Positions 1 through 6,301 of a stretch of 64,000 nucleotides of DNA are shown one piece after another. How positions within the stretch are numbered: position 1 is the stretch's first letter; every line of letters starts with the position of its first letter. The position numbers and the translations under genes were made by a program. This DNA is from Frischella perrara. GTDB lineage: Bacteria; Pseudomonadota; Gammaproteobacteria; Enterobacterales; Orbaceae. The notes under the pieces are model-generated. The model did no database searches. It had not been told where the DNA came from and saw only the letters and a program-made list of their open reading frames with translations. The DNA is taken from the NCBI RefSeq assembly GCF_000807275.1, contig NZ_CP009056.1:2047192-2111191 (forward strand), read 5' to 3'.

Positions 1-590
1 GGTCTTTGCAATGGGAAAATAATTCATTTAAAAGAATTGAATCACGTTATTTAGATTATCAAGACACACATCATACAGGTGAATTAGAATTGTTTTTTAA
101 TGATCAAAATCAAATTCAACAAGTGATTATAAAAGGTGATTATGCTTATGTATCATGCTTAGTTCCTCGCGATGATTTGGAGATTGATTTTAAAACCTTT
201 AATGATTTACTAGCAAAGCAGAATATTTTTGCCGACAATCTATCTATCTGGTCTATCGAAGATGCACTCTTTAATCAATGGTTAGATCAAGGACTCTTAA
301 ATCAAGTTAAGCAATTAGAGTTATATAAAACAAAAATTGAACTTTCAACTATTGCTAGATTGATTAAATTACCTTCTTTAGAAAGACTAAACTATCAAGA
401 ATCTTCGTTATACCAAACGGATTTAGTCCATGCTGAAAAACAAAAACAACAATATCGAGCACAAGCACTTGCTTTATTTGCTTTACAACAAAATAGCAAT
501 ATAAAAATAACGTTTACTGATGGTAGAGTTGACTACTTTCAAGCTTTTTTACCCGATGAGTTAAAACAGCAGCTTCCTAAACAAGAATAA
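1..590 (+). CDS. MORN/LRR-type putative immunity protein, copy 1 (5' end outside window)
   Basis: C-terminal part of the first visible member of a tandem family; the reading frame is open to the window edge, so the true start lies upstream. The first codons read WSLQWENNS, matching the middle of copies 4-6. The fragment carries the conserved VPRDDLE and DDLLAKQ/NDLLAKQ region, then a leucine-rich-repeat-like stretch (VKQLELY...LIKLPSLERL) and the tail LPDELKQQLPKQE. It combines the HHTGEL middle variant with the STIARL tail variant, a combination not seen in the other copies. A 5-base gap separates it from the next copy. I infer an immunity/antitoxin role from the array context; no enzymatic motif is visible. 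Confidence 0.8.
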   Translation, partial: SLQWENNSFKRIESRYLDYQDTHHTGELELFFNDQNQIQQVIIKGDYAYVSCLVPRDDLEIDFKTFNDLLAKQNIFADNLSIWSIEDALFNQWLDQGLLNQVKQLELYKTKIELSTIARLIKLPSLERLNYQESSLYQTDLVHAEKQKQQYRAQALALFALQQNSNIKITFTDGRVDYFQAFLPDELKQQLPKQE

Positions 591-595
591 CAATC

Positions 596-1627
596 ATGAT
601 AGTCAGAATGGAACTCAATCAATTAGAAAATCGTAGTAATTATTACTTTTATAATGACATTTTATTTACTGGCGAGGCGTACGATCATCGCGATAATCAG
701 CTCTATCAAGTCTATGAAATAACCGACGGCGAGATTACTGGCAGTCGAGATTATGGTTTTTTTGAAACTAACGGTATGATTAAAGTCGATTACGATTTGT
801 TACAAAGTGGTGAGAATTTTGATTATGAGATGAATCAATTACCTTATTATTTCCAAGGTCAACCATTTACTGGTGTTATGTATGAATACAGATTTGGTTT
901 TGTTTTGTCTGAAGCAATATTTATTAATAGTTGGTTAATTGAACATATCAGTTTTTATCCTGATGGAACCGGCAGAATAAGACTTTATGAAAAAAATGAT
1001 ATTGACCCCACCGAAACTACAGGCGATAGAACTTGGTATTTGGAGTCGGAAAATAATTCATTTAAAAGAATTGAATCACGTTATTTAGATTATCAAGACA
1101 CTAACCATACGGGTTACTTAAAGTTACTCTTCAATGATAAAGAACAGATTAACCGTGTCATTATTGAAGATGATTTTGCTTATGTATCCCTCTTAGTCCC
1201 TCGCGATGATTTAGAACTTGGTTTTAAAACCTTTGATGATTTACTAGCAAAACAGAATATTTTTGCCGACAATCTATCTATCTGGTCTATCGAAGATGCA
1301 CTCTTTAATCAATGGTTAGATCAAGGACTCTTAAATCAAGTTAAGCAATTAGAGTTATATCACACTCAAGTAAAACCATTAACTTTAACAAAAATACAGA
1401 AGTTACAATCTTTGCAAGAATTAAAGATATCAGAATCAAAAATTTATGAAGATGATGACCCTTTATCAATTAAACTACAAAAACAACGCTTCACTGAATT
1501 AGCATCAGCACTTTATTCATTAAAAGAGAGTTGTTCTATTCATGTTATTTTAGTTGATGATGATGAAAATATTTTAGAAAAATATTTACCAAATGACTTA
1601 AAGCATCAGCTTACTAAAGAAGAATAA
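596..1627 (+). CDS. MORN/LRR-type putative immunity protein, copy 2
   Basis: A 343-residue protein with no signal peptide or membrane segment, so probably cytosolic. Residues ~15-130 contain MORN-like (YwqK-antitoxin-like) units: the pairs LFTGEAYDH and PFTGVMYEY, each followed by a D/NG turn. The last third is LRR-like (KQLELYHTQ...LQSLQELKIS). It carries the N-terminal variant MIKVDYDLLQSGENF, the middle variant NHTGYLKLLF and the C-terminal variant KPLTLTKIQKL. The start ATGATAGTCAGAAT is shared by all full copies and lies 5 bases after the previous stop, suggesting translational coupling. Function is inferred from resemblance to YwqK-type antitoxins and the repeated organisation; no partner toxin is visible here. 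Confidence 0.85.
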   Translation: MIVRMELNQLENRSNYYFYNDILFTGEAYDHRDNQLYQVYEITDGEITGSRDYGFFETNGMIKVDYDLLQSGENFDYEMNQLPYYFQGQPFTGVMYEYRFGFVLSEAIFINSWLIEHISFYPDGTGRIRLYEKNDIDPTETTGDRTWYLESENNSFKRIESRYLDYQDTNHTGYLKLLFNDKEQINRVIIEDDFAYVSLLVPRDDLELGFKTFDDLLAKQNIFADNLSIWSIEDALFNQWLDQGLLNQVKQLELYHTQVKPLTLTKIQKLQSLQELKISESKIYEDDDPLSIKLQKQRFTELASALYSLKESCSIHVILVDDDENILEKYLPNDLKHQLTKEE

Positions 1628-1633
1628 AAAATC

Positions 1634-4717: not shown

Positions 4718-4723
4718 AAAATC

Positions 4724-5731
4724 ATGATAGTCAGAATAGAACTCAATCAACTAGAAAATCGTAGTAATTACTACTTTTATAATGACATTTTATTTACTGG
4801 CGAGGCGTACGATCATCGCAATAATCAGCTCTATCAAGTCTATGAAATAACCGACGGCGAGATTACTGGCAGTCGAGATTATGGCTTTTTTGAAACTAAC
4901 GGTATGGTAAAAGTGGATTCTGAACTTGTCCATAGTGGAGATTTTGACTATGTGATGAATGATATTCCTTATACTTATCTTGGTAAGCCATTTACTGGTT
5001 TATTTTATGATTATTTTGCAGGATTTGTATCTGGTGAAGCACTTTGTATTAATGGTTGGATTGTAAAAGATATCAGTTTTTATCCTGACGGTACGGGTAG
5101 ATTAAAAAAATACGAAGAAAAACATATTGATATTACTGAAACCACGGGTGATAGAGAATGGTCTTTGCAATGGGAAAATAATTCATTAAAAAGAATTGAG
5201 TCCCGCTATCTAGATTTTCAAGACACTAACCATACTGGTTACTTAAAGTTACTCTTCAATGATAAAGAACAGATTAACCGTGTAACAATTGAAGATGATT
5301 TTGCTTATGTATCCCTCTTAGTCCCTCGCGATGATTTAGAGCTTAGTTTTAAAACCTTTGATGATTTACTAGCAAAACAGAATATTTTTGCCGACAATCT
5401 ATCTATCTGGTCTATAGAGAATACACTATTTAATCAATGGTTAGATCTGGGACTCTTAAATCAGATTAAAGATTTAGAATTATGTTTTGTAAATTTTGAT
5501 CTTTTAACTATTGCTAGGCTAGCTAAATTAACTTCATTGAAAACACTAAAATATCAAGTAGACTCTCTAAACCAAACAGATTTAGTCCATGCTGAAAAAC
5601 AAAAACAACAATATCGGGCACAAGCACTTGCTTTATTTGATTTACAACAAAATAGCAATATAAAAATAACGTTTACTGATGGTAGAGTTGACTACTTTCA
5701 AATGCTTTTACCTGATGAATTGAGGTTATAA
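4724..5731 (+). CDS. MORN/LRR-type putative immunity protein, copy 6 (last of array)
   Basis: A 335-residue final member. The first ~225 residues follow copies 4 and 5 (one Arg-to-Lys change near residue 126). The LRR-like part then diverges into a third variant (IKDLELCFVNFDLLTIARL, LTSLKTLKYQ). The tail ends early at LLPDELRL, lacking the QQLPKQE end of the other copies. A diverged last member is typical of arrays that grow by unit duplication. It is followed after 45 bases by the endonuclease V gene in the same orientation. Confidence 0.85.
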   Translation: MIVRIELNQLENRSNYYFYNDILFTGEAYDHRNNQLYQVYEITDGEITGSRDYGFFETNGMVKVDSELVHSGDFDYVMNDIPYTYLGKPFTGLFYDYFAGFVSGEALCINGWIVKDISFYPDGTGRLKKYEEKHIDITETTGDREWSLQWENNSLKRIESRYLDFQDTNHTGYLKLLFNDKEQINRVTIEDDFAYVSLLVPRDDLELSFKTFDDLLAKQNIFADNLSIWSIENTLFNQWLDLGLLNQIKDLELCFVNFDLLTIARLAKLTSLKTLKYQVDSLNQTDLVHAEKQKQQYRAQALALFDLQQNSNIKITFTDGRVDYFQMLLPDELRL

Positions 5732-5776
5732 TTAATAAATGTAATTAGGTATTTTTATAAAAGGAAATTAATACAA

Positions 5777-6301
5777 ATGATACTTGCAATTGATGTTTAC
5801 TATATTGAAAATAGAGCTAAAACTGTCGGCATATTATTTGAATATTGGACGGACACAAAGTCTGATATTAATGCAGTCATTTCTGATTATCAAGATAACA
5901 TTGAACCTTACCAATCTGGTCAATTTTATCGTCGTGAGTTACCCTGCATTATGTCGTTATTAAAGAAAATTGATTTATCATCTGTTTCAGTCATTGTGAT
6001 TGATGGATATGTTCAGTTGGCAGAAGGAAAAATGGGTTTAGGCGGTCATCTTTATAATAGTTTAAATAAATCAATACCTATTATTGGCGTGGCTAAAAAA
6101 CCTTTTGCTGGAAATAGTCCATATTTGATTGAAGTAGTTCGTGGTGAAAGTAAACATCCACTGTATATTACTGCAATAGGAACTCCATTAGAGGATGCAG
6201 CTGCAAATATAAAATTAATGGCTGGTAAATATCGCATGCCAGATTTATTAAGTTTTTTAGATCAACAAACAAAATTATTTAAGTCTGAAACCGTCGTTTA
6301 A
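5777..6301 (+). CDS. nfi: Endonuclease V family protein (short form)
   Basis: A 174-residue protein of the endonuclease V family, which nicks nucleic acid next to deaminated purines (inosine). Visible family features: AIDVYY at the N-terminus (Asp6), YQSGQFYRRELP (Glu54), IDGYVQL (Asp76), GLGGHL (His91) and the GVAKKPF loop. Asp6, Glu54 and Asp76 fit the metal-binding acidic triad. It is shorter than the ~220 residues of E. coli Nfi and lacks the classical FLxFRE and HPR wording, so it belongs to a divergent subgroup. RBS AAAAGGAAA precedes the ATG. Only 45 bases separate it from the array, so co-transcription is likely. In Bacillus subtilis nfi (ywqL) also lies beside the toxin-antitoxin pair ywqJ-ywqK. 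Confidence 0.85.
   Translation: MILAIDVYYIENRAKTVGILFEYWTDTKSDINAVISDYQDNIEPYQSGQFYRRELPCIMSLLKKIDLSSVSVIVIDGYVQLAEGKMGLGGHLYNSLNKSIPIIGVAKKPFAGNSPYLIEVVRGESKHPLYITAIGTPLEDAAANIKLMAGKYRMPDLLSFLDQQTKLFKSETVV

What the first reader, a model, noticed from the sequence alone, without database searches (positions are those of the whole stretch)
1..6301. Tandem MORN/LRR immunity-like array ending in endonuclease V
Seen: at least six head-to-tail ~340-residue proteins with MORN-like N-halves and LRR-like C-halves, then a divergent endonuclease V in the same direction. Known: B. subtilis ywqJ (toxin), ywqK (MORN-type antitoxin) and ywqL/nfi (endonuclease V) lie together. Inference: this is an expanded poly-immunity locus, with a nucleic-acid deaminase toxin upstream of the window and endonuclease V acting on inosine lesions made by that toxin family. 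An antitoxin array combined with a repair nuclease would be a two-layer defence.
Basis: partly seen in the sequence, partly recalled or inferred. Interest (0 to 1): 0.82.

Follow-up and report, generated by a model that had tools for sequence, protein, structure and literature searches.

The report
Immunity gene array beside deaminase toxin
A bacterium of the insect-gut family Orbaceae carries an injected toxin predicted to chemically alter bases, followed at once by six recombining copies of its predicted antidote gene and a small relative of a DNA/RNA repair enzyme, a combination that suggests, but does not yet prove, protection against both the toxin and the damage it makes.

Summary
Confirmed and extended. 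The window starts inside the first of six head-to-tail 335-343 aa immunity genes. Just upstream of the window lie a VgrG gene and an 873-aa cargo effector that ends in a YwqJ-family deaminase (PF14431, E 7.7e-12, HAE...CxxC intact). The immunity family is paired with YwqJ toxins in other Orbaceae, UBA7310, Thiomargarita, Prochloron and another gammaproteobacterium. Copies are mosaic, with three types of C-terminal third: a homogeneous polyimmunity array. MORN-plus-LRR is supported by a confident model and by motifs, not by profile matches. The EndoV is real and belongs to a distinct 170-aa subfamily, about 23% identical to the genome's canonical EndoV, with catalytic residues kept in nearly all 81 sequences. 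Its link to the toxin is recurrent but not exclusive: it follows MORN-type immunity genes, whole or decayed, in several Orbaceae and two Flavobacteriales, and lies beside another deaminase gene in a Bacteroidota genome. Yet most copies (Chryseobacterium, many Gilliamella) stand alone, and two sit beside VasX/DUF6708 islands. Two-layer immunity is plausible, testable and unproven; 'inosine only' is too narrow.

The parts
1..590 (+). immunity copy 1, 3' part (the whole gene is L003:11565-12590; it starts 20 nt after the stop of the VgrG-linked YwqJ-deaminase effector L003:8923-11544, which lies outside the window)
596..1627 (+). immunity copy 2 (C-terminal type B)
1634..2665 (+). immunity copy 3 (C-terminal type B)
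2672..3691 (+). immunity copy 4 (C-terminal type A, as copy 1)
3698..4717 (+). immunity copy 5 (C-terminal type A; 99.7% identical to copy 4)
4724..5731 (+). immunity copy 6 (C-terminal type C; first 690 nt nearly identical to copies 4 and 5)
5777..6301 (+). short endonuclease V-like protein, 174 aa; 45-nt spacer after copy 6; catalytic positions D6, E54, D76, D162 with Y45 and K107
   Evidence: PF04493 E 1.5e-8; alignment with canonical EndoV; residue counts over 81 sequences
6785..7174 (+). DUF4878 lipoprotein, probably not part of the module (483 nt gap)

Best explanation
This is a type VI secretion effector-immunity island. VgrG carries an 873-aa cargo effector whose C-terminal YwqJ-family deaminase is injected into neighbours and deaminates a nucleic acid or nucleotide. 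The six downstream genes are a homogeneous polyimmunity array of one MORN-plus-LRR-like family. At least one copy neutralises the cell's own toxin by binding. The others, whose last third differs (three types) and which exchange segments by recombination, cover variant toxins of relatives. The short EndoV at the end most likely nicks deaminated DNA or RNA that escapes neutralisation, a second, toxin-sequence-independent layer. Shown here: gene order, deaminase and EndoV homology with intact catalytic residues, conserved toxin-immunity pairing, mosaic array, recurrent EndoV linkage. Inferred: binding, specificity by C-terminal type, substrate, and any protective role of EndoV.
For: YwqJ deaminase at the effector C-terminus with invariant HAE and CxxC across nine sequences; VgrG next door and two T6SS sheath genes in the genome. 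Immunity family directly downstream of YwqJ toxins in Gilliamella, Schmidhempelia, UBA7310, Thiomargarita, Prochloron and G344. Mosaic copies: blocks 96% identical across otherwise 69-80% identical copies, and C-terminal thirds at 47-59% versus 82-100%. Short EndoV: D6, Y45, E54, D76, K107 invariant in 81 sequences and D162 in 78; purifying selection, dN/dS 0.03-0.17. EndoV directly after immunity genes or their remnants in G000, G004, G007, G008, G019, G021; two tandem MORN-like genes 9 nt before EndoV with a YwqJ-like deaminase downstream in G974; MORN_2 protein overlapping EndoV by 1 nt in G443; HAE...PCxxC deaminase-like ORF before EndoV in G513; canonical EndoV beside YwqJ-Imm in UBA7310. 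Co-occurrence: Orbaceae 7/7 YwqJ genomes have the short EndoV, p 0.04; Flavobacteriales 3/5, p 0.02 (phylogeny not corrected).
Against: The short EndoV is in 29 of 44 Orbaceae genomes but YwqJ in 7; many copies have no toxin remnant nearby, and in Chryseobacterium it is a standing gene beside a glyoxalase. Three Orbaceae YwqJ-Imm loci (G012, G030, G031) have EndoV elsewhere in the genome. In G030 and G040 EndoV lies beside immunity genes of a VasX-type effector, which is not a deaminase. A 45-nt spacer and a canonical EndoV elsewhere in the genome weaken the case for a dedicated role. No activity or binding data. The short form lacks the GHR motif and the AHPRR motif of canonical EndoV.
Confidence: 0.6

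Rival explanations
1. Toxin and immunity array as above, but EndoV is a bystander: a resident, horizontally mobile repair gene next to which effector islands inserted more than once.
For: Standalone EndoV is the majority context in Orbaceae and Flavobacteriales; it also neighbours VasX/DUF6708 islands; at Gilliamella site A it stays where no toxin is found, and in G031 only a short gap separates it from housekeeping genes.
Against: Adjacency to MORN-type immunity genes recurs at different sites and in different phyla; two independent adjacencies among ten genomes has chance about 7e-4 under random placement, although islands are not randomly placed; B. subtilis and UBA7310 have a different, canonical EndoV at the same kind of locus.
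Confidence: 0.4
2. The six copies are a gene-dosage amplification of one immunity specificity rather than a library of specificities.
For: Copies 4 and 5 are 99.7% identical, 2 and 3 are 95.6%; all dN/dS below 0.5, no sign of positive selection.
Against: Three C-terminal types at 47-59% or 82-86% DNA identity within a homogenised framework, and mosaic blocks.
Confidence: 0.25
3. The short EndoV is itself an immunity protein that binds the deaminase or its substrate, its nuclease activity being dispensable.
For: Reduced size, loss of the GHR and AHPRR motifs, repeated placement directly after immunity genes.
Against: Catalytic positions conserved in nearly all of 81 sequences from two phyla, which binding alone would not demand.
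Confidence: 0.1

Closest known systems
Bacillus subtilis ywqJ-ywqK-ywqL
   Same: YwqJ-family deaminase toxin, then an antitoxin, then an endonuclease V, in one cluster (deleted as ywqH-L in PMC8321402; YwqL characterised in PMC6364969)
   Different: LXG/type VII delivery; one antitoxin gene; canonical EndoV. Here type VI delivery, six antitoxin copies, and a distinct short EndoV beside a separate canonical one
Homogeneous polyimmunity loci (PMC3482391)
   Same: tandem paralogous immunity genes next to a polymorphic toxin
   Different: that survey lists Imm6 and SUKH for YwqJ toxins, and LRR proteins in heterogeneous loci; the passages found do not list this MORN-plus-LRR family
T6SS deaminase toxins DddA and SsdA (PMC7901873)
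   Same: interbacterial deaminase effectors with immunity genes
   Different: other deaminase clades, shown to be cytosine DNA deaminases; the YwqJ clade's substrate is unknown
Orbaceae VgrG and Rhs effector loci (PMC8125069, PMC5727410)
   Same: Orbaceae, satellite vgrG loci, effector and immunity turnover
   Different: those papers treat Rhs toxins; their main text holds no 'deaminase' and no endonuclease V

Membership tests
YwqJ-deaminase toxin (PF14431) | profile match above the curated cut-off | tested here: met
   46 bits against 25.9, residues 776-861
YwqJ-deaminase toxin (PF14431) | zinc motif HAE ... CxxC | tested here: met
   invariant in alignment A1
YwqJ-deaminase toxin (PF14431) | toxicity and deaminase activity | not testable with these tools
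   needs an assay
T6SS cargo effector | encoded directly after VgrG in a genome with T6SS core genes | tested here: met
   VgrG L003:6391-8910; two TssC/VipB genes
YwqK-type MORN antitoxin | MORN_2 (PF07661) profile match | tested here: not met
   no MORN family up to E 1 for the copies scanned; the G443 neighbour of EndoV does match
YwqK-type MORN antitoxin | beta-hairpin sheet fold and position directly after a YwqJ toxin | tested here: met
   model pLDDT 87.8; position. Not a membership claim: works like YwqK, not filed as YwqK
Homogeneous polyimmunity locus | four or more tandem paralogous immunity genes | tested here: met
   six; that they confer immunity is inferred
Endonuclease V (PF04493) | profile match above the cut-off | tested here: met
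   35 bits against 23.4, first two thirds only
Endonuclease V (PF04493) | catalytic Asp, Glu, Asp plus C-terminal acid/His, wedge Tyr, Lys | tested here: met
   D6, E54, D76, D162, Y45, K107 align with canonical EndoV; residue roles from my knowledge of T. maritima EndoV
Endonuclease V (PF04493) | canonical equivalog score (NCBIfam) | tested here: not met
   26 bits against cut-offs of 230-300: a divergent subfamily
Endonuclease V (PF04493) | cleavage 3' of a deaminated base | not testable with these tools
   needs an assay

The most novel reading that the evidence does not exclude
The 170-aa EndoV subfamily is a damage-directed immunity enzyme against injected deaminase toxins in Pseudomonadota and Bacteroidota: it works on the product, not the toxin, so it is independent of toxin sequence and is kept as an orphan after toxin and antitoxin are lost.
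Probability: 0.35. Interest if true: 0.8.

Novelty: new variant of a known kind. Interest (0 to 1): 0.58.

Why it matters
Known immunity against injected toxins blocks the toxin itself. A repair nuclease kept with an antitoxin array would be immunity aimed at the lesion, and would help to tell what YwqJ-family toxins modify, which is unknown. The short EndoV subfamily is small, conserved and untested, so the question can be answered with standard assays. The mosaic six-copy array is a natural set for mapping which part of the antitoxin sets specificity.

Tried and rejected
Profile evidence for MORN in the array: none. PDB sequence search of the immunity protein: no meaningful hit. Fold search of its model: nothing below E 0.001. 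Profile-profile comparison with the Bacteroidota MORN proteins: inconclusive, too few sequences (hmmsearch E 3.5e-4 on a three-sequence set). EndoV structure prediction from two sequences: poor (pLDDT 51), not used. Deaminase domain against plasmids: no match. Idea that every YwqJ toxin carries EndoV: rejected; no EndoV was found within 10 kb of the Pseudoalteromonas, Pseudomonas or Chryseobacterium loci, and Flavobacteriales YwqJ genes mostly have other neighbours, of a different immunity type. Idea that EndoV always travels with the array: rejected. Iyer et al. 2011 (Nucleic Acids Res.), which from memory defined the YwqJ clade and may mention EndoV neighbours, is not in the library, so priority for the EndoV link could not be checked.

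Full report
Observation. The window is bases 2,047,192-2,111,191 of a 2.69 Mb one-contig genome. Its first 5.7 kb hold six tandem ORFs of 335-343 aa. The first begins 436 bases outside the window, and 5-6 nt separate neighbours. A 174-aa protein with a partial endonuclease V match follows after 45 nt. The genome has a second, canonical EndoV elsewhere (E 1.3e-74). The relatives named by the contig scan are Gilliamella and Schmidhempelia, so the family is Orbaceae. The genome has two T6SS sheath genes. Frischella perrara also has two T6SS (PMC10104596), so the genus may be Frischella, but this was not shown.

Upstream. The 12 kb before the window (L003) is a T6SS island: DUF4123 chaperone, PAAR, VgrG (L003:6391-8910), then an 873-aa protein whose residues 776-861 match YwqJ-deaminase (PF14431, E 7.7e-12). 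Nine sequences keep HAE and CxxC. The closest solved chain is the C-terminus of a Tc toxin subunit, YenC2. The toxin stop and the first immunity start are 20 nt apart.

The array. Copies are mosaics. The first 130 nt are 97-100% identical in all. The next stretch splits copies 2-3 from 1, 4, 5, 6. One block near nt 520-650 pairs copy 1 with 3 (96%) and copy 2 with 4-6 (96%), against the overall grouping. The last third forms three types: 1-4-5, 2-3, and 6. This is what recombination among immunity paralogues produces. dN/dS is 0.12-0.49, so there is no sign of positive selection, only of diversification plus homogenisation.

The immunity family. Relatives lie directly after YwqJ toxins in Gilliamella (up to four tandem copies, some of about 456-475 aa with a longer C-terminal repeat part), Schmidhempelia, UBA7310, Thiomargarita, Prochloron and G344. 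This pairing over large distances is the best evidence that it is the cognate immunity protein. Sequence profiles do not call it MORN. The model (pLDDT 87.8) is a beta-hairpin sheet then beta/alpha repeats, and the motif pair LFTGxAY / PFTGxxY resembles the ELFTGxxY...DGKxxG of MORN-type proteins. I therefore say it works like YwqK and do not file it as YwqK.

The EndoV. It is about 23% identical to the canonical enzyme over 167 positions, lacks the N-terminal part, the AHPRR motif and the GHR motif, but keeps the catalytic positions. Searches for this subfamily find it in 29 of 44 Orbaceae, 4 of 369 sampled Gammaproteobacteria (own genome included), 13 of 247 Bacteroidota and 54 of 396 Flavobacteriales. 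D6, Y45, E54, D76 and K107 are invariant in 81 sequences, and D162 in 78. It evolves under purifying selection. Some copies are pseudogenes.

Linkage of EndoV. For: directly after immunity genes or partial immunity genes in G000, G004, G007 and G021, after short remnants in G008 and G019; G021 even keeps a deaminase remnant between two immunity remnants. In G974, a Flavobacteriales genome, an island with a DUF4280-EndoU toxin holds two MORN-like genes, 9 nt, the short EndoV, two small genes and a YwqJ-like deaminase cassette (E 4.6e-5), which the order-wide PF14431 search also found. In G443 a MORN_2 protein overlaps EndoV by 1 nt. In G513 a HAE...PCxxC ORF precedes EndoV (no Pfam match); with a looser motif only two of 636 neighbouring ORFs match, both within four genes of EndoV. 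In G479 EndoV lies in a polymorphic-toxin island. UBA7310 has a canonical EndoV immediately downstream of the YwqJ-Imm pair on the other strand, one of three EndoV genes there. B. subtilis has ywqJ-K-L (PMC8321402). Against: most Flavobacteriales copies sit beside a glyoxalase-like gene, many Gilliamella copies between housekeeping genes, and G030 and G040 copies beside VasX-type effectors with DUF6708 immunity genes. Genome-level association is modest (p 0.04 and 0.02, uncorrected for phylogeny).

Mechanism. B. subtilis YwqL cuts duplex DNA with uracil (87%), hypoxanthine (92%), AP sites (84%) and less with xanthine (30%) (PMC6364969), so an EndoV could process products of a cytosine or an adenine deaminase. 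YwqJ expression stops B. subtilis growth without visible effect on chromosome or rRNA (PMC8321402), which leaves base conversion, tRNA or a nucleotide pool as targets. Known T6SS deaminases of other clades convert cytosine in DNA (PMC7901873). The most economical reading is neutralisation by binding first, clean-up of escaped lesions second. The second step is inference.

Verdict. Toxin plus polyimmunity array: well supported (about 0.85). EndoV as second layer: possible (about 0.35-0.45), with bystander as a near-equal rival. It is a new variant of the ywqJKL arrangement: type VI delivery, expanded mosaic array, distinct EndoV subfamily.

Noticed in passing
L177 (G1013, Flavobacteriales, 2.8 Mb), 6816-7331 +: Short EndoV 78% identical to the window's copy, far above the roughly 50% of other Bacteroidota: recent transfer between phyla, perhaps in a shared insect gut; no toxin beside it.
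   Followed up: partly
L087 (G040), reverse strand, about 8.3-12.7 kb: Another tandem immunity array: four DUF6708 genes and a broken fifth after a VasX_N effector, upstream of a short EndoV.
   Followed up: partly
L175 (G513) 4802-5623 +: Deaminase-like ORF (HAELRALS ... PCADC) without any Pfam match: possible undescribed deaminase toxin clade.
   Followed up: partly
L173 (G479) 9851-12565 -: 904-aa protein with a C-terminal SE...TCGSC motif next to a Gln_amidase toxin fragment; possible deaminase toxin, no significant Pfam match.
   Followed up: no
L003 1025-4860 +: Four unassigned ORFs (416, 292, 318, 240 aa) between the DUF4123 and PAAR genes: perhaps a second, unidentified effector-immunity set of the same T6SS island.
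   Followed up: no
L119 (Gilliamella WF3-4) 1-5777 +: Stacked remains: immunity part, displaced second YwqJ-type cassette, two further immunity genes, then EndoV; looks like sequential effector displacement.
   Followed up: partly
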